Shown here: piece after piece, positions 857 to 38,354 of the stretch
Layout of the letters: each line of letters starts with the position of its first letter
Position numbering within the stretch: the first letter of the stretch is position 1
From: Oceanidesulfovibrio indonesiensis
GTDB lineage: Bacteria; Desulfobacterota; Desulfovibrionia; Desulfovibrionales; Desulfovibrionaceae
Assembly: GCF_007625075.1 (NCBI RefSeq)
Contig: NZ_QMIE01000004.1
Span: forward strand, 1 to 64,000
Length of the DNA stretch: 64,000 bases
Reading direction: 5' to 3'
Made by a program: the position numbers and the translations under genes
Notes under the pieces: generated by a model
Seen by the model: only the letters and a program-made list of their open reading frames with translations
What the model was told of the DNA's origin: nothing
Databases searched by the model: none

Positions 857-1081
857 CATGTGATCGAAACGTCAGAAGGTTTCGATTCGATTACTCGTAT
901 CTGGGCTCAAGCCCGTCCGCGCCTCAGGCGGAATAACGCTGCGGATGTCATCGGAGGCATGGGGCGAAAAACTTTGTGCTTCATTACTCGGCCGTGACGG
1001 CCCTTGTCATACCAGAATTTTCCGGCGTCCCCTCCCCGGGTGCTCCGCAACCAGAAATCAAATCCAACGGACCTACCAGCC

Positions 1082-5855: not shown

Positions 5856-5995
5856 TTGTTTTTCGAGCAGATATTACCTGGAGCACAACGTTATTAGTAC
5901 ATCTGCGCAGCCTCGCCCGGGACGTGGACGCCCGCATGCCCGACGAAAGAATATTCAAGAAGGCTCTGGGGTATTCGTGTCCGACAGCATGCGCC

Positions 5996-10998: not shown

Positions 10999-11146
10999 GG
11001 CAACCCTCTCGAATTGTTTGAGTTGTATTACTGCGGACAAATATCGGCATTCTTGCTTCCTGTTCACAACGACGGCTGTCCTTGAGGACCAGACAGGGTA
11101 AGCCGCGAGAGCACAACGCCAAAAAAGCTGGTGCTGCTGAAAATTT

Positions 11147-23062: not shown

Positions 23063-23125
23063 GGCAACCCCAGTTCATTTCGGATGCAGAAAGTCTCTGT
23101 TGTTCAATGGTTTGCTGCAAGGACG

Positions 23126-23172
23126 GCCACGCAGAAAGCGGGGCCACACGTCGAACGCCGCGAGAGCCGAAC
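23126..23172 (+). repeat. Dispersed intergenic repeat, family 2, copy C
   Basis: GGCCACGCAGAAAGCGGGGCC followed by ACACGTCGAACGCCGCGAGAGC matches the copy at 26092 base for base at most positions. The central palindrome carries two changes (ACGTCG for GCGGCG). It lies between the FlgO-like operon terminator and the acetyltransferase gene. Confidence 0.6.
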
Positions 23173-23333
23173 GCCCCTGGAACTCTGCTCTATGCAATAT
23201 ACCCCTGGGTTCTTCAGGTAACGATACGCAGCAAATCAAACAACGGGCCGACCTCTTTCAGTGTATAGCATTTTCAGTTATTATCGAATTCAAAATTATC
23301 GCCGTGCACGCTTCGCCATTTCTGGATAGTTTG

Positions 23334-25309: not shown

Positions 25310-26092
25310 ATGGACGAACCAGCCAAAAATCTGCCCGTGCACAGGGGCGTCTACATTCTGCCAAATCTGCTGACCACGGCGAGTCTCTGCGCCGGTTTCA
25401 TGAGCATGGTCATGGTCCAGCGCGGCGAGTTTGAGAATGCCGCCATCGCCATTCTCGTCTCCTGGGTCTTCGACGGCCTCGATGGCAAGGTCGCCCGCCT
25501 CACCCGTACCACCAGCGAGTTCGGAGTCCAGTTCGACTCCCTGTCAGACGTGGTCGCCTTCGGCGCCGCGCCGGCATTCATGATCTACAATTGGGCCCTG
25601 GTCGACTATGGCCGTCTGGGTATGATGGCCGCCTTCTTCTTCCTTGCTTGCGGCGCAATGCGCTTAGCGCGCTTCAACATCCAGCGCAAGGTGGCCTTGA
25701 AGCACAACTTCGTGGGCCTGCCCATTCCGGCGGCGGGCTGCACAATCGCCACCATGGTCCTATTTGCCGAACGCCTGCCAGAGATGGCCTTGCCCGAGGT
25801 CATGGAGCCTTTGGCCCTGGTCCTGGCCTTCGGCCTGCCCATCCTCATGGTCAGCAAGGTACTCTACCCCTCATTTAAGGATCATGTCTGGTTCAAAGCC
25901 CAACCCTTCGGTTCCATGGTCACGGCAATCCTGCTTTTCGTGTTTGTGGCTTCGGATCCGTACCTGTTTGGCTTCCCGCTGTTCCTCGGCTATGGCATGT
26001 TCGGCGTGCTCTATACCTTCGCAGTCCTGGCAAAGTCCCCTTCCAAACGACTGGGCCACTGCCCGCAGGAGTCTACCGAGGAAATCTCGTAG
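25310..26092 (+). CDS. pssA: CDP-diacylglycerol-serine O-phosphatidyltransferase
   Basis: The 260-residue product is a polytopic CDP-alcohol phosphatidyltransferase. The family motif is complete at about residues 51-73: FDGLDGKVARLTRTTSEFG then VQFDSLSDVV (DGxxAR-x8-GxxxDxxxD). FNIQRKVALKHNFVGLPIPA is typical of PssA. About eight membrane helices are visible. It makes phosphatidylserine for Psd next door. ATG 25310 follows AGGA; an in-frame start at 25235 lies inside psd and is rejected. The stop codon touches the repeat at 26092-26144. Confidence 0.93.
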   Translation: MDEPAKNLPVHRGVYILPNLLTTASLCAGFMSMVMVQRGEFENAAIAILVSWVFDGLDGKVARLTRTTSEFGVQFDSLSDVVAFGAAPAFMIYNWALVDYGRLGMMAAFFFLACGAMRLARFNIQRKVALKHNFVGLPIPAAGCTIATMVLFAERLPEMALPEVMEPLALVLAFGLPILMVSKVLYPSFKDHVWFKAQPFGSMVTAILLFVFVASDPYLFGFPLFLGYGMFGVLYTFAVLAKSPSKRLGHCPQESTEEIS

Positions 26093-26144
26093 GCCACGCA
26101 GTAAGCGTGACCACGCGGCGAACGCCGCGAAAGCAGAATGTTTG
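26092..26144 (+). repeat. Dispersed intergenic repeat, family 2, copy B
   Basis: GGCCACGC-AGTAAGCGTGA is followed by CCACGCGGCGAACGCCGCG, whose CGCGGCG-AA-CGCCGCG forms a perfect 7-bp hairpin, and then AAAGCAGAATGTTTGAAAC. The same order occurs at 23126 and, inverted, at 32560-32615. It begins at the last base of the pssA stop codon and has no T-tract, so it is not a standard terminator. Confidence 0.65.
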
Positions 26145-26460
26145 AAACATACGATGTGATCCAAAAGCATATCGACCTGGAACAGAACGGTATCTGAGCA
26201 TAGAGTAATTCTTTCATATTTTTATACTTGCTAGAACCATCCATTCGGGCTAATCTTGTAATAATATTGGCCGTACCTTTGGGGAGCTCTTCGAATTTCG
26301 GAGATGCTGCCCTTTTTTACTGGCGATTTTTGTCTGGAACAATATGGATTAACTTATGCATGGCGTATTGATTTATTCCGAAATACTTATTTGCATCGAA
26401 GCGCTGCAGTTTCGCCGCAGTGTTGCAACCTGAAATCGCCCGCAACTTTACGATCTACAC
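26145..26460. other. AT-rich intergenic region before an orphan terminator
   Basis: No supported gene. A frame starting at 26304 runs across the terminator into rnk and is not credible. A TTGCTA-N17-TAATCT pair near 26230-26260 could be a weak promoter. Between 26398 and 26460 small hairpins CTGC/GCAG and GTTGC/GCAAC can be drawn, which together with the terminator at 26461 would suit a small RNA. Confidence 0.4.
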
Positions 26461-27072: not shown

Positions 27073-28140
27073 ATGGTGGATATTTCCGCAAAGAAGACAA
27101 CATCGCTCAACCCGACGGACATCCTGTTCCAGACGCCATACTGGGCGAAGGTCAAATCCCGTCTGGGCCTGGAGCCCCATGCATTTGACATTTTTTCGAC
27201 CGGTTCGTGGGGCGACGTTCTCGTGCTGCTCAAGAATTGCGGCAACCATACGATCGCTCTTGTGCCCCAGGGACCAGAGTGCGCTCCGAGAGAAGATGAG
27301 CGAGGCCTGTTTCTAGAAAGCCTGTCAGAGGCCCTGGCGGAAGATCTGGGGCCGAATGTTGCGCTCATCCGGTATGACCTGCCGTGGCGGTCGCAATATG
27401 CAGGCGAAATGAAAGAGCAAGGCTGGAGCGAATTTCCGGAGCCCAGAATCAGGGAAATGCGCATGAACATGGGCACAAGGCACTGGAATATCAAAAAAGC
27501 ATTTGAAGATATGACCGTGGCGAGTTCGCTTGTGGTCGATCTTGCCGGCAGCGAGCACGACATACTTGAACGGATGAAACCGAAAACCCGGTACAACATC
27601 AGACTTGCGATTCGAAAGGGCGTTGCCGTGCACGAGGCGAGCATGGACAACTTGTCTGATTTTCACGACTTGTATCAGCAGACAGCCCGACGCAACGGAT
27701 TCGGCTCATGCGATATCGATCAGTTCAAGGCCATGTTCCGATGCCGTTTTTCCGCCCCTGGCCACTCGGACCTGCTTTTCTTGATCGCCAAGCATAATGA
27801 GGATATTCTGGCCGGCGCCATCATCGGAATCGCCGGGCAAACAGCAACGTACCTGTACGGGGCTTCCGCCGACATCAAACGCAATTACATGGCCCCCAGC
27901 CTCATGCACTGGACCGCGATGCGCTTTGCTCGCCGGAAAGGGTGCCTGACGTACGAAATGGGGGCTGTCTCCCCCACTCCAAATCCGGCCCATCCTTTTC
28001 ACGGGCTCTATCGTTTCAAGACAGGATTTGGCGGCAGAATCGAACTCAGGAGCGGTTCATGGGATTACCCGCTGGATCAGGACGCCTACCGTGAGATTTG
28101 CAGAGTCGAAAATCTGTACAGGGAGAAGGGCGAACACTGA
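27073..28140 (+). CDS. FemAB/FemX-like GNAT aminoacyl- or peptidyl-transferase
   Basis: The 355-residue product has the double-GNAT architecture of FemX/FemAB proteins. The first half carries FQTPYWAKVKSRLGLEPHAF and LIRYDLPWRSQYAGEMK. The second half carries RMKPKTRYNIRLAIRKGVAV (the hallmark K.R.NIR..K.GV), DLYQQTARRNGFG, ILAGAIIGIAGQTATYLYGA and MGAVSPTPNPAHPFHGLYRFKTGFGG. Known members attach amino acids to lipid II or related substrates using aminoacyl-tRNA. AAAGGAGG at 27061-27068 fixes ATG 27073. The acceptor in this Gram-negative host is unknown; envelope or capsule modification is possible. Confidence 0.88.
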   Translation: MVDISAKKTTSLNPTDILFQTPYWAKVKSRLGLEPHAFDIFSTGSWGDVLVLLKNCGNHTIALVPQGPECAPREDERGLFLESLSEALAEDLGPNVALIRYDLPWRSQYAGEMKEQGWSEFPEPRIREMRMNMGTRHWNIKKAFEDMTVASSLVVDLAGSEHDILERMKPKTRYNIRLAIRKGVAVHEASMDNLSDFHDLYQQTARRNGFGSCDIDQFKAMFRCRFSAPGHSDLLFLIAKHNEDILAGAIIGIAGQTATYLYGASADIKRNYMAPSLMHWTAMRFARRKGCLTYEMGAVSPTPNPAHPFHGLYRFKTGFGGRIELRSGSWDYPLDQDAYREICRVENLYREKGEH

Positions 28141-28312
28141 AGGCCTCTGCACCGCTCCTATCCTTCGCAGACCATCGGCTCGAACCTGGAGAACGCCTAC
28201 GCACCCAAGAAGTGAAATGCTTCTCTTGTCCAAGATGGGCACAGGAACTTTCGACGGGACAACGTATCGTCTGGAGTTCGGACGGCAAAATCCTGAACAC
28301 CCCCCGCCCTTC

Positions 28313-29110
28313 TCACCACCGCCACTGTATCTTGTGCCGCCCTGTGACAATGCTCGAAGCATCTTTCTTGACTGCGCGCCATGGGCCGCCGCCGGCGATG
28401 ATGTCTCGAATGGTCTTGATGGGGCGCAGAATATACCGGAAGCGTTGCTTGAAGATGCAGTTTTCGAGCTCCACCGTTGCGCCCTGGTCGGCCTGAACGC
28501 CGACGCAGAAGTCATTCCAGACCGCGCCCCAATATTCGATGATGCAGTCCTGGAGTCTGGCATGGCCATAGCGGATTCGTGGATGACGACGGCTGTTTCC
28601 TTCCAGCACGCAGCCTTCCATGGAGAGTTTGGCCGCTGCCTCGACCGGCTTGTGCTCCGGATCGCCGGTGCCCACAAGCACGGCCTTGCCATAGTTGCGT
28701 ACAGTGCAGTCGACCATGCGCACCAAGTTGGCGCCGGCGCCGCGGACAACGGAGACGGCCTCGTCCTCGTTCCGGTTGCCGCCGATAAATATGCAGTCGC
28801 GAATAATGCAGGATCCGGCTTCGGGCCTGTCCACCATGATGGCGTCGCCGGCAACATGATCGAAGCTGAGGGTTCGGATGTCGATCCGGTCGGCCTCGAC
28901 CCAGAAACCGAATCCGAATCGGATGACCCGACCGTTGCCGATGATGGTGAGATTGTTCGTGCGGAAACGGAGCCTGTCCACGAGCATCAGCGCCATGGAA
29001 GGCGGCCACAGGCAGATGATGCAGTCACCCGATCTTGCGTTCGAGACTGCGTGGCGGAGGGTTCCTTTCAGGTGTCCATCCACAGGGCTGGTAACGTAAT
29101 GATTGGCCAT
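28313..29110 (-). CDS. Pectate-lyase-like right-handed beta-helix protein
   Basis: The 265-residue product follows the polysaccharide lyase family 1 pattern: SPVDGHLKGTLRHAVSNARS and a TLRxA start, NNLTIIGNGRVIRFGFGFWV, IDIRTLSFDHVAGDAIMVDR, SCIIRDCIF (the bulk of the PL1 WIDHCSF-type turn), KAVLVGTGDP and the strong SRRHPRIRYGHARLQDC (PL1: xRxPRxRxGxxH). Repeated strand turns indicate a beta-helix. There is no signal peptide, unlike secreted pectate lyases, so it may be cytoplasmic or exported otherwise. It lies 51 bases behind the chemoreceptor gene and may be co-transcribed with it. Substrate uncertain. Confidence 0.7.
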   Translation of the reverse strand: MANHYVTSPVDGHLKGTLRHAVSNARSGDCIICLWPPSMALMLVDRLRFRTNNLTIIGNGRVIRFGFGFWVEADRIDIRTLSFDHVAGDAIMVDRPEAGSCIIRDCIFIGGNRNEDEAVSVVRGAGANLVRMVDCTVRNYGKAVLVGTGDPEHKPVEAAAKLSMEGCVLEGNSRRHPRIRYGHARLQDCIIEYWGAVWNDFCVGVQADQGATVELENCIFKQRFRYILRPIKTIRDIIAGGGPWRAVKKDASSIVTGRHKIQWRW

Positions 29111-29161
29111 ATATCACAAGCTCTTGGATGAGTTCGTCCAGGCGAGCCTGCCCGTTTCGCC

Positions 29162-31624
29162 CTACTGCCCCAGCTTGTTCATGAGCGCGCTCAGGTCGTT
29201 GGACATGTCGGCCAGTTGCTGCACGGCGTGGGCGGATTGTTCCATGGACTCCGCCGTCTCGTTTGTGATGGTGTTGATCTCGGTCACAGAACGGCTGACC
29301 TGTTCAGCTGTGGATGATTGCTCTTCGGCAGCGGTGGCAATGCTCTCCACCTGCCGTGCGTTCACCTCCATGAGCTGCACGATCTCCTGCAGGGCCGTGC
29401 CGGACTGATCGGACAGATCCGTGGCCTTCTGCACGGCTTCGGACGCGCTGTTCATGTTCTCCACGTTCCGTTGCGTCGCTTCCTGAATGGCCTGGATGCT
29501 CGCGCCGACTTCGCCGGTAGCGCTCATGGTCTTCTCGGCCAGCTTGCGCACCTCGTCGGCCACCACAGCGAATCCCCGGCCGGCATCTCCGGCCCTGGCC
29601 GCTTCGATGGCCGCGTTCAGGGCAAGCAGATTGGTTTGATCGGCAATGTCGGAAATGACGTTCATAACGTTGCCGATGGATTCGGATCGCTCGGCCAGGG
29701 CGTCCATGTTTGCAAGCAGTTGCTGGGCTGCGGACTGCACCTGAGTGATGGCGGCAACAGACTGCCGGACGATCTCGGCCCCTTCCAGCGCTTTGTCCCT
29801 GGTGCTCGCCGAGTTCTTGGAGGCTTCGCCGGCGTTCTGCGCCACCTCGAGCACCGTGGCGTTCATCTCCTCCATGGCGGAAGCGGTTTCCGAAACGCGG
29901 TCTCGCTGCATGCCGGCCCCGCGGCTGATCTGTTCCACCTGGGCGGCCAGTTCGTCCGCCGAGGAGGCAAGTCGTTCGGAGAGACTGTTTGCCTGCTCCA
30001 CAACATCAAGAATTTTCCTCTGAGTGCCCTTTATCTCGGTCTGGTCAACCATAACCTCGAACGCGCCAACCACTTCCCCCTGCTCGTTATGTATCGGTAT
30101 GCCTGTATAGGATATATCCAGGGCACGACCCTGTGGATTAGCGTGTGTCTCGGAGGTCGTTTCTTCCATGAGCGACATGGCCCTGCGGCAGGCGCAGCTC
30201 TCCGTGCCGCAGTCCGACATCTTGAATATGCTGCTGCACGTCTGGCCAAGAGCGGCTTGCCTGTCCATGCCTGCCAGCTCCAGTGCGGCTTTGTTCATGT
30301 AGGTCACACGGTATTGCGTATCCATGGCCACTACTGGTGTGGGCACCTTGTCCAGATAGGACGAGTATGCATCGGCAAGCTTGTTGGTGGAGGACACGAT
30401 ATCCGAAAACGCGCCAGGGAATGCGTCCTGATCGCCTCGTTCGTCGAGACGTCCATCGCGAACCAGAGAGCTCACTCGATAAAATTCCGCGACCATACGG
30501 TTCAAGGTCTCTGGAATCATGCGCATTGCCGCGGCCAGTCTGGCCACTTCGTCGCGGCCGCGAATGTCGAGCCTGGCATTGAAATCACCTTGGGCGATTG
30601 ATTGGGCGAAAGCCATGGCCCGGCCGAGCTGCCTGGAGATGGTTACCGACAGAAACAACGCAACGACAGCGCCGATGGCCAGCGCGGCAAGGCTGATGGT
30701 GAAAATGGTTCGGGAAAGCGTTGCATTGCGATTCTGGATTTGCGGCCCGAGTTCCTCTTGTTTCTCGATCACGGCAGTCTTCACCGTCTCGAAGGTGGTG
30801 ACAATTTTCGGGCCGATCTTGTTCAGAGTATCTTCGATCACGGCGCGACGTTGCATTTCGAGATTCAGCACTTCGTTGCTCGCCTCAATATACAGTTCCG
30901 AGGCTTTCAGTATGGATTCGTAAAGCGTCCTGACTTGCGCAGTCTCTCCGGCCCTGTCTCGCTCTTCAATAAGAGTTTGAAATTGTGAAAACTCTTCACG
31001 CGCTTTGACGGCATCGTCAATGTCATGCGTATTCCACATATAGTTCACCATGGCCAACCGCCCCTGCATAATGTGGCGCTGCACCTGAGATGCTGTGTGT
31101 AAACCGGAAAAGAGTTCATAGAGTGTGCAGACTTCGATGATTTTCTCCAGCTCCTGCACCATGGCCGGACCTATCTCTTCCATATCTGCTGCTTTTTCTT
31201 TTGCTTTTTCGGTAATCGCAACCAAACGATCGAAACCGGATACAAACGTATCCAGATCGGATGTTGCATCATTCAACAAATTCAAAATTTCTGGATTCAG
31301 GATCTGATTTTCTGCTTCTTGCATGAATCCTTGCAACATATTAACCTGATCATGAAATGAGTTGACAGCATCTTCGCTTCCATCCGCTACGTAACTTCTG
31401 GCATCCATTTGTGCCAACAGCAGATTTTCCTGCATTCGTCCAGCAAGATTGGTGTCGCGCGCCATTTGCTGATATTCGGAAAAATCGTTTTGCGACGCCC
31501 CAAGACCAATATATCCACGCCACGCGACGATTGCGAACAGAAGCAATACGATGCCGAAGCCAAAAAACAGTTTGACTTTGATGCTGATGCTGTTGATCCC
31601 GAAGTATCCTTTGCGTATCGACAT
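29162..31624 (-). CDS. Methyl-accepting chemotaxis protein with HBM, HAMP and PAS domains
   Basis: The 820-residue receptor has an N-terminal membrane helix ([19 protein letters not shown]). A long all-helical periplasmic sensor of about 250 residues follows, of the helical bimodular (HBM) type ([21 protein letters not shown]). The second membrane helix is at about 305-325, then HAMP ([20 protein letters not shown]), a PAS domain near 440-550 and the signalling tip [20 protein letters not shown]. The PAS contains clustered cysteines ([20 protein letters not shown]), suggesting metal, haem or redox sensing. HBM domains bind organic acids in known receptors. RBS AAGGAA precedes ATG 31624. Confidence 0.93.
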
Positions 31625-32079
31625 AAAAATTCCTTACAATAAGTCGAAAATGTGCGCCGCACTCGAATTAAATGAAATAAACACTTAAAATTCACTGGTT
31701 TTCTGCAACAGAGATTCTGCTAGACCATCCCGGTCAGAAAGTCCACTCCTTGCGGATTGCCCATATGCACTAAAAGGAACCCACCATCGCAACGCGCGCA
31801 GCCACTGCGACGTTGTCAGTCAAACTGCGCGTAATCGCTCACACAAGCACGCATGGCCGGCTGTGTAATAATTCGGCACATATAAGATTCTAGATCAGGA
31901 TATTGAAAGCTTGCGTCCTGTAAGGAGTCTGACGAATTCTCCCCCTTTTTTCCTCTTTCCATCTTTGCATAAACCTGATTTCGTGAACTGTGGAAGCGTG
32001 CCCCGGTCAACCGCTGTGTCGGAAAGCCATGCTGCGCAGCAGAGTACCATTGAGCAACACAGCATCAGGGAGGTTCTCC
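31625..32079. other. Divergent intergenic region
   Basis: The region must hold the promoters of the chemoreceptor (minus) and the DUF2267 gene (plus). No sigma-28 or sigma-54 consensus was found on the receptor side. An upstream in-frame extension of the DUF2267 frame (from 31990) is ignored because of the ribosome-binding site at 32068. Confidence 0.5.
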
Positions 32080-32523
32080 ATGGCGACAGGAATTTCCAGT
32101 TTTGACAGTAGCCTGAACAAGACGATCGCGTTTCTGCACGATGTCCGGAGCAACCTGGCCCTGGACGACAATGAACAGGCGTACAAGGCAAGCCGTGCGG
32201 TGCTGCATGCCCTGCGCGACAGGCTGACCGTAGAAGAAGCGGCTCAGCTTGCGGCCCAGTTGCCCATGATCATTCGAGGATACTATTACGAAGGCTGGCA
32301 TCCGGCAGGAAAGCCGGTGAAAATGCGCACGCTCCAGGAATTCCTGGATTACGTGCACAAGAAAATGGGTACGCAGCAGACGCCGAAACTGAGCGACCCG
32401 AACCGGCTCAGCCGTGGTGTGTTCGCTGCACTAGCAAAGCACGTCACGAAAGGCGAAATCCAGTCCATCATCGATCTGATGCCTGCCGAAATCCGGCCGC
32501 TGTTCAGCTCGCAGGAGCAGTGA
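32080..32523 (+). CDS. DUF2267 family protein
   Basis: The 147-residue cytoplasmic, helical product matches DUF2267: AYKASRAVLHALRDRLTVEE, AAQLAAQLPMIIRGYYYEGW and LDYVHKKMG, followed by a second half-repeat FAALAKHVTKGEIQSIIDL and MPAEIRPLF. The two helical halves look like an internal duplication, as usual for the family. Function is unknown; other members cluster with stress and CBS-domain proteins. GGGAGG six bases before ATG 32080 fixes the start. It is monocistronic and is followed by the repeat element at 32541. Confidence 0.88.
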   Translation: MATGISSFDSSLNKTIAFLHDVRSNLALDDNEQAYKASRAVLHALRDRLTVEEAAQLAAQLPMIIRGYYYEGWHPAGKPVKMRTLQEFLDYVHKKMGTQQTPKLSDPNRLSRGVFAALAKHVTKGEIQSIIDLMPAEIRPLFSSQEQ

Positions 32524-32540
32524 CTCCTGCTTAGAGCGCC

Positions 32541-32666
32541 TATTACTGGGAGCAAGAAATTTTAAACTTCTTGCTTCCGCGGCGTTCGCCGCGTGGCCCC
32601 GCCTGGAGCGTGGCCGCCCTTATAACTGGGGCGCAAAAATGTAAGAATTTTCTGCTCCCAGTAATA
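32541..32666. repeat. Composite palindromic element containing family 2 copy A
   Basis: TATTACTGGGAGCA (32541-32554) and its exact complement (32653-32666) bound a 126-bp element. A third, diverged copy (TATAACTGGGGCGC) stands at 32621-32634, so the right third can itself fold as a hairpin (32621-32666). Between them lies the family 2 repeat in reverse (32560-32615), with the CGCGGCG-TT-CGCCGCG palindrome at 32578-32593. A second hairpin is GGAGCAAGAA/TTCTTGCTTCC (32549-32578). No coding capacity. From 32667 to 32915 nothing further is seen. Confidence 0.7.
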
Positions 32667-32915
32667 ACAAAACCTCGTTTCCATTCACGCGGCTTGCCTG
32701 GCAACTGGCATCATCAAACTGCATCGACGCAGGCTTGGCTTCGTTTTCCCTGCCAGAGGCCAAGCCGCTCGCGCTTGGAGGAACAAACGGTTTTGTGAGA
32801 CACTCTTTTTCGGAGTCGAAGAAAAGGGAGAGCTACACGTCGCTCCCCCACCGCTTCGACTGCTTAACCACCTTAAGCAATGCTTGAAAAAACCGTGGGC
32901 TTTCGTTCCGGCGCC

Positions 32916-33194
32916 CTACTCCGCGCCGATTGAAAACATGCGTTCCAGGTCATGTTTGGAAATGACCTTGAAGGCGATAAGCGTTTCCGTGTTTCGGATG
33001 CCGTCGATCTGAGGAAATTGATCGGTAACGATGTCGGAGATCGCCTCGTTGGTTCTGGCACGGATGACGGCTACGAGGTCAAAACGCCCACCCACCGAGT
33101 ACACCTCGCTCACCTCATCTATATCCACAAGCGACTGGGCAACATTCTGCAACTGCCTGGACTCTACGTTTATCAGAACAATGGCGTTGGTCAT
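32916..33194 (-). CDS. Stand-alone Lrp/AsnC ligand-binding (RAM) domain
   Basis: The 92-residue product is only the effector-binding half of Lrp/AsnC regulators: MTNAIVLINVESRQLQNVAQ, VDIDEVSEVYSVGGRFDLVA, EAISDIVTDQFPQIDGIRNT and ETLIAFKVI. The helix-turn-helix domain is absent, so it cannot bind DNA alone. Such proteins form rings that bind amino acids and may modify full-length Lrp members. ATG 33194 follows AAGGAG. The frame is open further upstream but has no second ribosome site and does not encode an HTH. Confidence 0.9.
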   Translation of the reverse strand: MTNAIVLINVESRQLQNVAQSLVDIDEVSEVYSVGGRFDLVAVIRARTNEAISDIVTDQFPQIDGIRNTETLIAFKVISKHDLERMFSIGAE

Positions 33195-33310
33195 CACGCT
33201 CTCCTTCTTGTTGGGAACCGGGCATGAAGCACAAATTCCTTCATTTCTGGCTGCTGCACCCGGCATGGCTACAAAGGCAACAGCCTCATTGAAGTTAAAA
33301 ATCATTGTTG

Positions 33311-33413
33311 CAGTTTGATCAGAATATTCGAGTGCAAAGCGCGAGGAAAGATCAAGACCGATGCGTTAACCTTTCTGAAGCAACGCGACAAGCAGACGTT
33401 GTTCAACAGTCTG
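33311..33413. repeat. Dispersed intergenic repeat, family 1, copy Y
   Basis: The left end CAGTTTGATCAGAATATTCG continues with AGTGC (33311-33335), followed by GATCAAGACCGATGCGT and CAGACGTTGTTCAACAGTCTG (33392-33413, with one base more on the left). It shares ordered blocks ATATTCGAGTGC, ATCAA-N-CCGA-GCGT and GACGTT with the element at 4779-4889. The ends are imperfect inverted repeats. It lies directly before the stop codon of the SGNH hydrolase gene. Confidence 0.6.
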
Positions 33414-34601
33414 TCAAACCCCACCGGACCGTTTCAGGTCTTCTTCCGAGGGCGGCTCAAGGGGAATGATCCCCGAGTTCACAAGTTGACGAGTCATCTC
33501 CCAGGCCAGGGCGCCCTGCCCCGCCTCGTTGATGTGCCCCAGGCCGTCCGGCAGTTTGAACAGAGCATTTGAAAGCACGGAGCGGACATCCAGGACGTTG
33601 ATGCCCTTTTCTTCACAAGCTTCGATCAATCCATACAACTGGGTCATGCAGATATATTCGGCTCCATGTTCTCGAGCTTCCTTGCTTTTTTGTTCGATTA
33701 TGGCCACGGCGCGGTCCAGGACCTCCTGCTCGGTGTATCCCTGACGCCCGCTACTTTGTCCGTGCGACTCGGCATAGGCTGCGGAAGGCCCGAATAAACC
33801 TGCAACGCTGCCCAACCCGTTGTCCCGGAGCGCTTCCGTATCGTGGGCATGAGGAGCGCCGCCGCCCTTCAGCGCCAGAGTGATCATCATGCCCATGTCA
33901 CGGAATATGGCGTAGGCCCGACTGACGCTGAGAAACCTGTCGACACGCCGAATGGCGACATACCAGGCGTCGTTATTGGCCACCGGCGAGTTCGTCAGGA
34001 CCAGGGCGCCGTCCTCCGCAACTTCGAACATGGGTTTGCCCATATTCCAGCGTCTGTCGTGCATGTGACGCTCGTCCTTGAAATGCGGCACGTATGAAAT
34101 GACCAGATCCGGCTCGTACTTGAATCCTTCATGGCGTAGAAACAGAAGATTCTGGTCCACGCCGAAGCCGTCGACCCCCATGTTGATGACTTCAACACCG
34201 GGTAGATAGCCTTGAAGCAGTTTAGGGAAATGCTGCTCCTCGCGCACGCCGAAGCCGAACGTGCGCGAATCTCCCAGCATTACAATGCGGTACACCCCCG
34301 GGGGCTTTTCGTATGTGGCTTCAGCGTCCCTGAGTCCCTTCGAGTTGATTCTGTAGACGACCTTCACGCCGGTGCGTTTGGATTCAGCGATCACACCTGG
34401 CCGCAACTTCCAGCCAAGTTCATCGTCCAGCATGCCAACCTGCGGAGGCACTGCAAGGCCCCAGGTTTTGTCCATATACCCGTACGCCAGCCTGGCCACG
34501 CCTTCCACCACAAGAATTACTGCGAAACCCCAAATACATGTAAAAAGCACGATGCGCCCTGTGCTGCGTCTGGTTTGGCTTCGAGATGTCGTCAAGGTCA
34601 A
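33414..34601 (-). CDS. Membrane-anchored SGNH/GDSL-type hydrolase
   Basis: The 395-residue product has an N-terminal membrane helix (residues 17-35, IVLFTCIWGFAVILVVEG). Its SGNH domain has block I IVMLGDSRTFGFGV (nucleophile Ser near residue 111), INMGVDGFGVDQ (block II/III region) and the C-terminal catalytic DGLGHINEAG (D-x-x-H). It should be an esterase, lipase or O-acetyl-transfer enzyme acting in the periplasm. The predicted start is TTG 34601, supported by AGAGG six bases upstream; no suitable ATG precedes the membrane helix. The membrane-protein gene at 34811 lies 209 bases upstream on the same strand. Substrate unknown. Confidence 0.82.
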   Translation of the reverse strand: MTLTTSRSQTRRSTGRIVLFTCIWGFAVILVVEGVARLAYGYMDKTWGLAVPPQVGMLDDELGWKLRPGVIAESKRTGVKVVYRINSKGLRDAEATYEKPPGVYRIVMLGDSRTFGFGVREEQHFPKLLQGYLPGVEVINMGVDGFGVDQNLLFLRHEGFKYEPDLVISYVPHFKDERHMHDRRWNMGKPMFEVAEDGALVLTNSPVANNDAWYVAIRRVDRFLSVSRAYAIFRDMGMMITLALKGGGAPHAHDTEALRDNGLGSVAGLFGPSAAYAESHGQSSGRQGYTEQEVLDRAVAIIEQKSKEAREHGAEYICMTQLYGLIEACEEKGINVLDVRSVLSNALFKLPDGLGHINEAGQGALAWEMTRQLVNSGIIPLEPPSEEDLKRSGGV

Positions 34602-34810
34602 CCTCTTCTGTTGTTCAATGCCATTGCCATATTTCTGAGAGCAGAAAGCTATGTATGTTCGCTCGCCAATTTCAAGGCCCGCTCGCTCCCCGGAAAACCA
34701 TGCGGCAAATACAGCGGGAGCATGAAGCGAGCAACTTCACGCTTCAATGAATGGTGACATATTTTAATCGCTGACACCCGTTCAGGTGTCAAGGCTCCGC
34801 CAAAAGGGCT

Positions 34811-35674
34811 TCACTCCTCGCGTCCTGCCGGACCATCCGGCGCCAGATAATTGTAGGCAAGGGTCAGGCAAATGGCGAACGTAACGGCGGTGACGCCGAG
34901 AAGCGCGTCCCAGTAGCGCGGCGAAGCCAGGGCCATGCGGATGAGCAGTGTGGATACGGCGAAGCCGGAGTTGCGGAATGTGGAATGGAACGATGGCAGA
35001 TACAGCGAAGAGATGAGTACGAGCAGGATGTCGCTGAAAATGAGTACTGTATAGAAAACATCAAAGAACGGTTGGGAGTGGCCCGTCTGCATTGCCGTCA
35101 GCCCCATGTCCACCCCGACCGAGAAGAATATGCCGAGCAGGACGAGCGCGAGAAGCTTCTTGGTGGCCACGAAACGGTACAGCGCACCTGCGGATTTGCT
35201 GCTTTTGCGCTTCACATGCAGGCGGCTATAGATGCCAAGTCCTACGAAGATGAACAGGGCGCCGGCTGCGTCGGCTATTATGGGCAGTACTGGCCCAATG
35301 CCGTCTGCAATCTCGATGGGCTCCTGGAAGTGAACGAGTTCCTTGAAGGCGTTGCGCAGAAGGATGAGCGCAAGAATCTCGAACTGCTTGCCCACCGCGC
35401 GGGACATGGAGCACGGCAGTGTAAAGACGAGGTCGATGACCTCCTTGAGAAGCACAAGGCCGAAAGCGAGCTTTATGGCATAGTAGTGGCTTGTGGGAGT
35501 CAGCGTTGCGACAGGCTCAGGAAGCAGCCCGCGACGGTTCAGCTCGATGCCGGCCAACCCCAGAAGAAACAGTGATATCTGCGCCAGAGCGATGCCGCGC
35601 TGGGTTCGCGGTTTCTCCCATAACGCGTGCAGCGGATCGAAAACGTAGGTCGCCCAGTCGAGAATGCGGTACAT
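34811..35674 (-). CDS. Polytopic membrane protein, unknown family
   Basis: The 287-residue product has about six hydrophobic helices: near residues 27-43, 66-84, 127-146, 172-190, 203-223 and 257-277. Loops are short, and a charged loop (SRLHVKRKSSKSAG) faces the cytoplasm. No transporter signature was recognised. Helix 5 with KLLALVLLGIFFSVGVDMGL and helix 6 with FYTVLIFSDILLVLISSLYL have the look of an ion- or lipid-handling channel, but this is speculation. ATG 35674 follows a purine-rich stretch (AGGAGGGGGGAG) at 12 bases. An in-frame ATG at 35716 would add 14 residues and has no ribosome site. A small hairpin, TGACACC/GGTGTCA (34772-34791), lies past the stop. Confidence 0.68.
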   Translation of the reverse strand: MYRILDWATYVFDPLHALWEKPRTQRGIALAQISLFLLGLAGIELNRRGLLPEPVATLTPTSHYYAIKLAFGLVLLKEVIDLVFTLPCSMSRAVGKQFEILALILLRNAFKELVHFQEPIEIADGIGPVLPIIADAAGALFIFVGLGIYSRLHVKRKSSKSAGALYRFVATKKLLALVLLGIFFSVGVDMGLTAMQTGHSQPFFDVFYTVLIFSDILLVLISSLYLPSFHSTFRNSGFAVSTLLIRMALASPRYWDALLGVTAVTFAICLTLAYNYLAPDGPAGREE

Positions 35675-36056
35675 CACCCTGGTAGTCTCCCCCCTCCTCA
35701 GCATGAGAAGGTTCATTGTTTCAACTCTATAGCCAGACTCTCGATTCATATCAAGACTGGCTTTGAGTGCAAACTTGGTTCTGATCGCGATCCGATCGGC
35801 TACCCGATAGAGCTGCTGGTCGGCTGTCTCAATATGTCTTACACTTCTGGAGAAATTGGCAAATACAATACACAAAAACTCTGCATGTTACGCATGCAAA
35901 AATCAACAACTTTAATATTCGATGCTCATAGTGTAGGGGCATATCCTACGTATATCATCACTGAAACAATCCCGAAATTGCAACCTTCCCACGCACAACA
36001 GATCAGCGCATCGTGTTCGAAACTCATCCATGAACCATCAAAAGGAGAGGTTTCGT

Positions 36057-37022
36057 ATGCGAAAGTCGTATTCCGTATTTATTGCAATGGCTATCATGTC
36101 GTTCATGGCATTTGGCATTGCGTCTGCGCGACAGGACTCACAGAACCAGACGCGCGACCAGAGGAAGTCGCAGATGCAGGAACGCAGCAATAAATCCGGC
36201 GGGGCTGCAGACGCCAAAGCGTTCTTCCGCGAGCATCTCATTGCTCTGGATCGCATGACCAATCAGGAGATCAACATCAACGACGAGAATGAAATGGAAG
36301 TGGTCGACTTCCTCGTTGATCCCATGACCGGAAAAATCGAGTACATGATCCTATCTTCTGAAGGATGGCTCGGAATGGGTGAAGAACGCCATGTGCTTCC
36401 CTACAGCAGCCTCAAGGTCGAACCGCAACAACGGATGCTCAGGGTGAGTGACGCCGGGATAACTATAAGTGACAACACCAAGTACTCTCCGAAAAGGAGC
36501 GGCGGCTGGAGCATGGAGGAAGTTGCTGAGTACAGCGAGAAGACCAGGCAAAGAAACACCATAAAAGAGTCTCGCACTCAGGAGACGGACCGTAGGAACA
36601 GGGCGATGGACCGGCAGAAGGAATCCACGGCCCAGTCCGATAAGCGTGACTACACGGATAAGGATGGGCAGCAGGCTCTTGTAGAGGCAAACCGTCTGTA
36701 CAACCGTGACGTATACGGTACCGACGGCAACGAGATCGGTGAAATGGACGCCATCCTCGTCGACGTCGAGACCGGCAAGATCAAGATGGTCGTCCTGGAG
36801 CAAAATGCGCTCTTCGGCCTGATGGGCGAGAAGTACCTGATTCCGTGGCAGTCCGTGCATTTTGATAACCAGACGCAGCAGATCAATCTGCGAGTCAGTG
36901 AAGACAACCTGGATGCCTACAGCAAGGCCACGGAGATCGAGGACTGGGACGGCTCTTATCTGCCCAGGAATACTGCCGTGGAGATGTACAGGCAGTACAA
37001 TTACGAGTATGAGAGCCGCTAA
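36057..37022 (+). CDS. Exported protein with two PRC-barrel domains
   Basis: The 321-residue product begins with a signal peptide (residues 1-25, FIAMAIMSFMAFGIASA). Two PRC-barrel domains follow. The first is near residues 60-130 (HLIALDRMTNQEININDENE, VVDFLVDPMTGKIEYMIL). The second is near 215-290 (LYNRDVYGTDGNEIGEMDAI, LVDVETGKIKMVVLEQN, KYLIPWQSV). A charged, RQ-rich linker lies between them. PRC barrels usually sit in cytoplasmic photosystem or ribosome-maturation proteins; the exported double form is common in envelope stress proteins of proteobacteria. RBS AAAGGAGAGG at 36041; terminator at 37070. Function unknown. Confidence 0.87.
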   Translation: MRKSYSVFIAMAIMSFMAFGIASARQDSQNQTRDQRKSQMQERSNKSGGAADAKAFFREHLIALDRMTNQEININDENEMEVVDFLVDPMTGKIEYMILSSEGWLGMGEERHVLPYSSLKVEPQQRMLRVSDAGITISDNTKYSPKRSGGWSMEEVAEYSEKTRQRNTIKESRTQETDRRNRAMDRQKESTAQSDKRDYTDKDGQQALVEANRLYNRDVYGTDGNEIGEMDAILVDVETGKIKMVVLEQNALFGLMGEKYLIPWQSVHFDNQTQQINLRVSEDNLDAYSKATEIEDWDGSYLPRNTAVEMYRQYNYEYESR

Positions 37023-37069
37023 TTCTGCCTGAAGCAACGCAGGATTAGCCTGCACCGCTCCAGAATGCT

Positions 37070-37108
37070 GCCGAGCCCCGCGTTTTTGACGTGGGGCTCG
37101 GCTTTTTT
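37070..37108 (+). terminator. Terminator after the PRC-barrel gene
   Basis: GCCGAGCCCC (37070-37079) pairs with GGGGCTCGGC (37093-37102), and TTTTTT follows directly. An inner GCGT/ACGT extension is possible. Confidence 0.9.
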
Positions 37109-37269
37109 GTCAGCAATTTGCGAAGATGTCACACAGAACAATTTGCTGGAACAACTAGGAAAAAGCGCCAGTCGGACTGGCCATTGAAGATGTTGCGGGG
37201 CGTCGAAGATGCCATCCATTCCGGTCGTACAGATATGTTTGTTCAAGCGACCGGAAAGTCCTAGAATTT

Positions 37270-37896
37270 TTAGTTTTTCTTGGACCCTTCAGGGCGCGGG
37301 GAAAGCATGGCAAGCAGCTCGGTGGCCAGTTGTGGAATGCGCCGCGCCGCATAGTAGCGGCGCTTGTAATATGGGTCCTGTAAGGAGTCGATGACTACGC
37401 CTTTTTGGATGGAGGCGTGGATCATCCGGGATTCCCCCAGGTAAATGCCCACATGGCTCACCCGACCGCGGCCGCGGATGTCGAAAAATACGAGATCGCC
37501 GGGCCGCAGGTCATCCTTCTTCACTGGCGCGCCGAGCAAGACCTGGTTGCGGCTGCCATGCGGAAGTTCAAGACCAAACTGCCCGAACACGAAACGCGTA
37601 AATCCCGAACAGTCGAATCCTTTGGGCGTGGTGCCGCCGTAGCGGTATCGAGTGCCTATGAACGGCTGAGCCGCATCGAGAATATGCTCCTTGAGAACAG
37701 ACCCGGGGTGCAGATGCGGCGCGGCCTGGCTTTCGGTTGCCACAGCAGGGCCGGATGGGCTGCATGCACGGGCCGTGGGGGCGGGTTGTTTTGTGGAACA
37801 GGAAGCGGCGAGCAGAAGAATGGCTGCCAATACGAGAAGTCGCAATGGCATGGCGCGTAACGGCATGGGGCGGGACGTGGTCAGGCGTCGTCTCAT
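37270..37896 (-). CDS. NlpC/P60 cell-wall hydrolase lipoprotein
   Basis: The 208-residue product has an N-terminal hydrophobic signal with lipobox LAASC (Cys 33) and a linker. A C-terminal NlpC/P60 domain has catalytic Cys 96 in GFDCSGF, His 148 in SHVGIY and His 160 in MIHAS. RYRYGGTTPKGFDCSG is typical of Spr/NlpC endopeptidases, which cut peptidoglycan stem peptides from the outer membrane. The start is uncertain: ATG 37896 and two later in-frame ATGs all give a working signal peptide and none has a strong ribosome-binding site. It is monocistronic. Confidence 0.88.
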   Translation of the reverse strand: MRRRLTTSRPMPLRAMPLRLLVLAAILLLAASCSTKQPAPTARACSPSGPAVATESQAAPHLHPGSVLKEHILDAAQPFIGTRYRYGGTTPKGFDCSGFTRFVFGQFGLELPHGSRNQVLLGAPVKKDDLRPGDLVFFDIRGRGRVSHVGIYLGESRMIHASIQKGVVIDSLQDPYYKRRYYAARRIPQLATELLAMLSPRPEGSKKN

Positions 37897-38354
37897 GGAG
37901 TTTCCGCAATATCCGGCGCCATCAATAACACGGGGTACGACCTGAGTCTCAACACATACGGTGGCGCCGTTCCGACGGGTGTATACTAAAAGTTACTGTG
38001 GTGGTAAAGCTTTTTCCTCATATAACATTCCGCCATCCCTGTGGATTATCGCAATATTCAAAGATCACTCACTAAAATATTTTGCGTGTATTTTCAGAGT
38101 GTTGTTTAATCTCCCCACGCAAACAAACAGACCGGCGCCGAATCCTGTTTTTCACTGAACGTTGAGAAGCCATTTTCGCAAGCTGTTCGACCGTATTGAA
38201 TCCAGCGTTCATCGTCCGTTTTATTTCTTATGCTGCCTGAGCCAGTGTGTATGACACGGTGAAGGCGTTTCCACGCGAAAAAAAAATTTATCACCCTCTG
38301 CCAATGGTCGCGGTGGGTTGCAAAAGACCTTTCACAGCGTTTCTTTCCTACCTG
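37897..38354. other. AT-rich intergenic region upstream of the flagellin promoter
   Basis: No supported gene in either direction. The region is divergent: the NlpC lipoprotein promoter must lie at its left end, the flagellin sigma-28 promoter at its right. It includes an A-tract (38280-38288, AAAAAAAAA interrupted by the line of code) and short frames without ribosome sites. Confidence 0.5.

What the first reader, a model, noticed from the sequence alone, without database searches (positions are those of the whole stretch)
32541..32666. Composite palindromic element with three TATWACTGGG copies enclosing a family 2 repeat
TATTACTGGGAGCA at the left end has its exact complement at the right end, a third diverged copy lies at 32621, and a family 2 repeat sits in the middle. 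The element can fold into at least three hairpins. The nested layout looks like a miniature element that captured, or was entered by, the family 2 repeat.
Basis: seen in the sequence. Interest (0 to 1): 0.55.

Follow-up and report, generated by a model that had tools for sequence, protein, structure and literature searches.

The report
Miniature transposon nested in another repeat
A 126-base mobile DNA scrap, present more than fifty times in this bacterium and probably moved by a borrowed enzyme, has jumped exactly into a TA pair inside another repeated element; it is a new family of a well-known kind.

Summary
Bases 32541-32666 are a discrete 126-bp repeat bounded by TA and a perfect 12-bp inverted repeat (TA|TTACTGGGAGCA...TGCTCCCAGTAA|TA). 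The same genome holds 54 distinct full-length places scoring at least 93 bits with a model of it. Subfamilies occur in 10 of 199 genomes of the bacterial family, this one included. It is a non-autonomous MITE of IS630 type: relatives carry IS630-type elements (DDE_3 transposase) with very similar ends at fixed distances from the gene. The insertion can be read directly. The element sits in the left end of a second repeat family ("B"). Two other B copies of the same genome are empty there, AGAGCGCC-TA-AC(A)AAACC, so insertion duplicated TA. "MITE" is therefore correct. That it captured, or was entered by, a family 2 repeat is not supported: the core is in all 45 full-length copies aligned (three genomes, two genera), and at least one of the window's two "family 2" repeats is a decayed member of the same family. 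No IS630 transposase was found in this draft genome, so the mobilising enzyme is inferred. Closest analogue: RUP of pneumococcus. New family, known kind.

The parts
32541..32666 (+). the MITE, 126 bp including both TA dinucleotides; none of the listed ORFs of 80 aa or more overlaps it
32541..32542 (.). TA, left copy of the target duplication
   Evidence: empty B copies L152 and L154 hold one TA here
32665..32666 (.). TA, right copy of the target duplication
32543..32554 (+). left terminal inverted repeat TTACTGGGAGCA
32653..32664 (-). right terminal inverted repeat TTACTGGGAGCA
32548..32578 (+). hairpin 1; 3 of 11 pairs show a change on both sides in at least one copy
32595..32615 (+). hairpin 3 (GGCCCCGC...GCGTGGCC)
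32533..32540 (+). first 8 bases (AGAGCGCC) of the interrupted B element
32667..32806 (+). rest of the interrupted B element, ending in GGTTTTGTGAGACACTCT
34630..34753 (-). diverged full-length member of the same MITE family
   Evidence: 47.4 bits, E 2e-12
23098..23199 (-). decayed member of the same family (a 'family 2 repeat'), left end, hairpins 1-3 recognisable
   Evidence: E 1.2e-11
26083..26151 (-). probable decayed member (a 'family 2 repeat'); the match rests mostly on hairpins 2 and 3
   Evidence: E 8.7e-6

Best explanation
The feature is a 126-bp non-autonomous transposable element (MITE) of the IS630/Tc1-mariner type. Shown: it exists in dozens of copies at unrelated sites with the same ends; it is flanked by TA; it sits in a B repeat at a place where two other B copies of the genome have a single TA; relatives carry IS630-type elements with very similar ends. 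Inferred: an IS630-family transposase acting in trans binds the TTACTGGGAGCA ends, cuts the element out and pastes it into a TA. That enzyme has since been lost from this genome, or lies in an assembly gap, so the copies now drift. The central hairpins are part of the element and probably persist because they do no harm, or help it, once transcribed.
For: Copies: 39 others at 89-97% identity; 54 distinct full-length places at 93 bits or more among 142 model matches, some of which are the two strands of one copy. Copies are more alike within a genome (mean 94.5% own, 90.4% G006, 83.5% G001) than between genomes (72.5-79.2%), as separate expansions would give. Ends: similarity stops at TA in the aligned copies; 28 of 29 have TA at both ends (L030, which lacks the left end, was left out of 30). 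Empty sites: window AGAGCGCC-[TA...TA]-ACAAAACC; own genome C1:197253 AGAGCGCC-TA-ACAAAACC and C9:107747 AGAGCGCC-TA-AC-AAACC. Parent type: L080 holds a 1124-bp element with a 346-aa ORF whose product has DDE_3 (E 1.7e-38) and ends TATTACTCAGAGCA / TATTACTCAGATCG; L088 holds a second. At -54/-55 or +27 to +29 from the gene the ends of L113, L117, L128, L133, L134 and L101 match the MITE end at 10 to 13 of 14 positions, the best being TATTACTTGGAGCA in L133, a broken copy. Over 14 positions the six ends measured reach scores that 7 to 47 of 10240 TA-starting control positions in the same loci also reach, controls that include the true ends.
Against: No DDE_3 match in the own genome at E 0.01, nor a P0001 match in it or in G001 at 1e-20. 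Of the 10 MITE-bearing genomes, only G024, G031 and G113 are among the 24 with a P0001 match, and the loci fetched from them show no complete element with matching ends; whether G006, G027 and G117 were among the 348 searched is not shown in the listing (G006 and G027 had no DDE_3 match). No IS end identical to the MITE end was found; recognised ends differ at 1 to 4 of 14 positions, and the left end of L101 at 5. The empty sites are paralogous B copies. Of the 4 other own B copies, 2 are empty with TA, 1 has only the right half and 1 is too diverged to read; the 2 copies of G001 have TC and TG, not TA. Movement was not observed.
Confidence: 0.94

Rival explanations
1. A REP/REPIN-type palindrome spread by a RAYT (tyrosine Y1 transposase) by single-strand transposition, without target duplication.
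For: Palindromic, hairpin-rich, mostly intergenic, many copies; sister genome G006, which carries the family, has two Y1_Tnp matches.
Against: No Y1_Tnp match in the own genome or in G001, both carriers. TA is duplicated at the filled site. Ends resemble IS630 ends.
Confidence: 0.03
2. A composite formed when a MITE captured, or was entered by, an independent family 2 repeat. Odds raised from 0.07 to 0.10 on checking, because the aligned copies come from two genera, not three, and the 26083-26151 match rests mostly on the core.
For: The core GGCGTTCGCCGCGTGG recurs, with 2 and 0 mismatches, at 23144 and 26111, and the model match at 26083-26151 is mostly core. Solo 44-46-bp palindromes without the core exist.
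Against: The core is present in all 45 full-length copies aligned. The 23098-23199 repeat also keeps the left end and hairpin 1. The two right-type solos read TATTACTGGGGCG, as expected of deletion between the repeated TATWACTGGG motifs.
Confidence: 0.1
3. A structured RNA element kept by selection (terminator, mRNA stabiliser or processing site), spread as a MITE but now doing a job in untranslated regions. Compatible with the best explanation.
For: Strong fold; three local hairpins with 93.4% of cells paired and 18 cells changed on both sides, each reached by 0 of 500 shuffles; here it lies 17 bp after a stop codon.
Against: No terminator-like site in it. A rough gene caller put 17 of 34 copies in tandem, 9 in divergent and 3 in convergent spaces, 1 inside an ORF and 4 unresolved, so no preference for gene ends. 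Only 4 pairs have a change on both sides (83 of 500 shuffles reach 4), further pair types are fewer than in shuffles, and cells follow subfamilies rather than independent events. Rfam has no match.
Confidence: 0.15

Closest known systems
RUP (repeat unit of pneumococcus), proposed to be mobilised by IS630-Spn1
   Same: Similar size (107 bp), about a hundred copies, TA at the termini, target duplication, terminal repeats like those of an IS630-family IS; RUPs also insert into other mobile elements (passages of PMC2229807)
   Different: 9-bp TIR in that table against 12 bp here; the parent type is not found in the same genome here; RUPs are reported in IS genes, this copy sits in another miniature repeat; sequences not compared
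ERIC/IRU/RU-1 of enterobacteria
   Same: 127 bp, TIR, TA at the termini, TSD (table in PMC2229807, passages)
   Different: 7-bp TIR in that table and another taxonomic range; sequences not compared
Correia/NEMIS of Neisseria
   Same: About 107 and 155 bp, TIR, TA, TSD (PMC2229807 passages)
   Different: 24-bp TIR; sequences not compared
Chunjie MITE of Geobacter uraniireducens
   Same: MITE with tens of copies; recalled, not tested, to be from a bacterium of the old 'deltaproteobacteria'
   Different: 235 bp (passage of PMC10969869); sequences not compared

Membership tests
IS630-type MITE | short, no transposase gene | tested here: met
   126 bp; none of the 37 ORFs of 80 aa or more listed for 28000-38000 overlaps it
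IS630-type MITE | multiple dispersed copies with defined ends | tested here: met
IS630-type MITE | TA target duplication | tested here: met
   one filled against two empty paralogous sites of the same genome; the two G001 copies have TC and TG there
IS630-type MITE | ends shared with an IS630-family element | tested here: met
   similar, not identical: 10 to 13 of 14 positions in several relatives at fixed distance from the gene
IS630-type MITE | mobilisation in trans by that transposase | not testable with these tools
   needs an excision or transposition assay
IS630-type MITE | autonomous parent in the same genome (usual, not obligatory) | tested here: not met
   no DDE_3 match in the own draft genome of 330 contigs
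REP/REPIN (RAYT) | Y1 tyrosine transposase in the genome | tested here: not met
   0 matches in G000 and G001; 2 in G006
ERIC | ERIC consensus sequence | not tested
   no ERIC sequence was aligned

The most novel reading that the evidence does not exclude
A modular MITE: two TA-bounded palindromes (each able to stand alone as a 44-46-bp unit) joined by a conserved two-hairpin core, kept across genera with compensatory changes because the transcribed hairpins are useful to hosts or to the transposition complex.
Probability: 0.15. Interest if true: 0.45.

Novelty: new member of a known kind. Interest (0 to 1): 0.3.

Why it matters
It gives a clean worked example of a bacterial IS630-type MITE whose insertion can be read base by base from repeats inside one genome, and it links a multi-genus repeat family to a transposase group. 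It also corrects the reading of the window: the composite and at least one 'family 2' repeat are one family, and the flanks are the parts of a second repeat.

Tried and rejected
RAYT origin: rejected. Independent family 2 repeat: not supported after the model search, not finally excluded. Orthologous empty site: in G001 the Lrp homologue lies beside homologues of the window's 29162 (57%) and 34811 (77%) genes, so the neighbourhood is partly conserved, but the 4.5 kb taken holds no DUF2267 match (best E 3.8), no B match, and only a 13-base match to the MITE (E 0.018, chance level). With all three absent no base-precise junction can be read there, so the site comparison rests on B paralogues. 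B as a known RNA: no Rfam match up to E 1; it proved to be a repeat. Terminator role: no terminator-like site in the element. MITE on plasmids or phages: no match at E 1e-5. Naming the organism: not achieved. Two genome-contig scans gave nothing; my pattern had one wrong position, and records near the window may be left out, so these misses say little. A plasmid protein search gave only distant hits, one of them in Solidesulfovibrio. The end-to-end helix shows no covariation clearly beyond shuffles.

Full report
Observation. The perfect inverted 14-mer, the third TATWACTGGG at 32621 and the core are present as described. The fold is far stronger than shuffles give. None of the listed ORFs of 80 aa or more overlaps the element. 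It lies 17 bp after the stop codon of a DUF2267 gene and 249 bp from the 3' end of a converging gene with an Lrp/AsnC ligand-binding domain.

Copies. The window lies in a 4.29-Mb draft genome of 330 contigs. A nucleotide search scored 40 of 111 candidates and reported the window copy and 39 others of 89-97% identity. A covariance model built from 45 copies gives 142 matches at E 0.01 in this genome. 150 of 2622 candidates were scored, and some places count twice because both strands of a palindrome match. The 54 best, all at 93 bits or more and all reaching both model ends, are at different places; a long tail of diverged members follows. The bounding 14-mer has 154 hits with up to 2 mismatches, against 10 for the reversed control. 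Thirty copies with flanks show unrelated DNA outside TA...TA. Of 29 copies (L030, which lacks the left end, dropped), 28 have TA at both ends, and the base after the right TA is A or T in 27 of 29.

Relatives. In 199 genomes of the same bacterial family (own included) the model matches 10, in 8 of 44 genera. To the window copy, full-length copies of G001 (same genus) are 72-80% identical and listed copies of G006 (another genus) 76-83%. In the 45-copy alignment, mean identity is 94.5% among own copies, 90.4% within G006 and 83.5% within G001, against 72.5-79.2% between genomes. Separate expansions fit this; no tree was made.

Insertion event. A search with 3.1 kb around the element found, in G001, a homologue of the right flank starting at the element's edge. 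With the element and both TAs left out, the match runs through the junction: AGAGCGCC--ACAAAACC in the window, AGAGCGCCTCACAAGACC in G001. The flank proved to be a second repeat family, B: 4 matches in the own genome (4 of 15 candidates scored) and 2 in G001, 5 and 1 with another copy as query. Seven other genomes gave only short matches of 19-37 query bases at E 1e-4 to 0.01. Of the four other own B copies, two are empty with one TA where the window has TA-element-TA (C1:197253, C9:107747), one has only the right half, and one is too diverged to read. The two G001 copies have TC and TG at that point. B starts AGAGCGCCTAACAAAACC and its right end reads GGTTTTGTTAGRCAC in the better copies, so it has inverted ends itself and looks like a separate MITE; its own target duplication was not worked out. 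The element thus entered B's left end. These sites are paralogous, and the gene neighbours of B differ between window and G001.

Transposase. No DDE_3 domain was found in the own genome. In 149 genomes of the family, 33 have one. Scanning the 30 returned loci (and two others) for the MITE end showed L080, a 1124-bp element with TATTACTCAGAGCA and TATTACTCAGATCG ends, and L088. The L080 protein has DDE_3 and helix-turn-helix domains; the candidate catalytic D176, D255 and E292, chosen by me, have 36 residues between the last two. Searching it in 348 genomes of the class gave 24 with a match at 1e-20. Among the loci returned, a MITE-like end recurs at -54/-55 before or +27 to +29 after the gene in L080, L088, L113, L117, L128, L133, L134 and L101, with 10 to 13 of 14 positions; the left end of L101 has 9, L112 and L081 show 9, and the other loci at best 7 to 9. 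Similarity extends inward: 19 to 21 of 30 positions for the six ends measured, reached by 10 to 21 of 10240 controls, which include the true ends. The solo palindrome L064 has one end identical to the L080 left end, TATTACTCAGAGCA. I recall that IS630 elements duplicate TA; PMC2229807 says that RUP inserts at TA-containing targets and resembles IS630-Spn1 ends (passages seen).

Anatomy. The 45 copies aligned (29 own, 7 G001, 9 G006; partial copies L030, L034, L035, L039 and L056 and duplicates left out) support hairpins 1 to 3: 93.4% of cells paired and 18 cells changed on both sides, each reached by 0 of 500 shuffles. But only 4 pairs have such a change, which 83 of 500 shuffles reach, and further pair types (14) are fewer than the shuffled mean of 16.5. 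The end-to-end helix has no clear excess. Twenty stretches taken around 14-mer hits outside the copies already seen include solo palindromes of 44-46 bp bounded by TA (L058, L059, L064, L066, L073). Hairpin 1 alone, or the right palindrome alone, would result from deletion between internal direct repeats (GCTCCC or TATWACTGGG). The two right-type solos carry the outer TATTAC, not the inner TATAAC, as that predicts. This is inference. L062 and L071 look like diverged relatives of similar layout.

The family 2 question. Of the window's two family 2 repeats, that at 23098-23199 matches the model from the left end through hairpins 1 to 3 (E 1.2e-11); that at 26083-26151 matches mostly in hairpins 2 and 3 (E 8.7e-6). 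A further full-length relative lies at 34630-34753 (E 2e-12). The core therefore looks intrinsic. An ancient capture before the genera split cannot be excluded, and no genome search for the core alone was made.

Function. A rough gene caller placed 34 distinct copies, from 39 loci given, as 17 tandem, 9 divergent, 3 convergent, 1 inside an ORF and 4 unresolved; the window's own 38 spaces of 60 bp or more were 17 tandem, 9 divergent and 12 convergent. There is no sign of a preference for gene ends. The plainest reading is a selfish passenger tolerated between genes.

Verdict. Observation confirmed, MITE reading confirmed and made specific, capture reading not supported. New family of a known kind.

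Noticed in passing
window 32533-32540 and 32667-32806; L154, L152, L155, L193 (own), L144, L153 (G001): Second repeat family B, about 150 bp, inverted ends AGAGYGYCTAACAAAACC, 5 matches in the own genome and 2 in G001; probably another MITE. The window copy has a short internal deletion against its relatives.
   Followed up: partly
L058, L064, L066, L059, L073: Solo 44-46-bp TA-bounded palindromes, likely deletion forms of the 126-bp element.
   Followed up: partly
window 34630-34753: A diverged full-length member of the family lies 28 bp upstream of the listed start of the 33414-34601 (minus) SGNH-like gene.
   Followed up: partly
window 898-986, 5872-5975, 11026-11145: Three weaker model matches (E 0.0016, 0.00056, 0.00072), perhaps older remnants.
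   Followed up: no
L029 left flank: TATGACTGGGAGCAGA directly beside the copy's left end, possibly a remnant of another copy.
   Followed up: no
L078, L079 (G006): G006 has two Y1_Tnp matches (RAYT-like), with none in G000 and G001.
   Followed up: no
L142 (G001:C1:820000-824500): G001 keeps homologues of the window's Lrp, 29162 and 34811 genes together, without DUF2267, B or the MITE in the 4.5 kb taken.
   Followed up: partly
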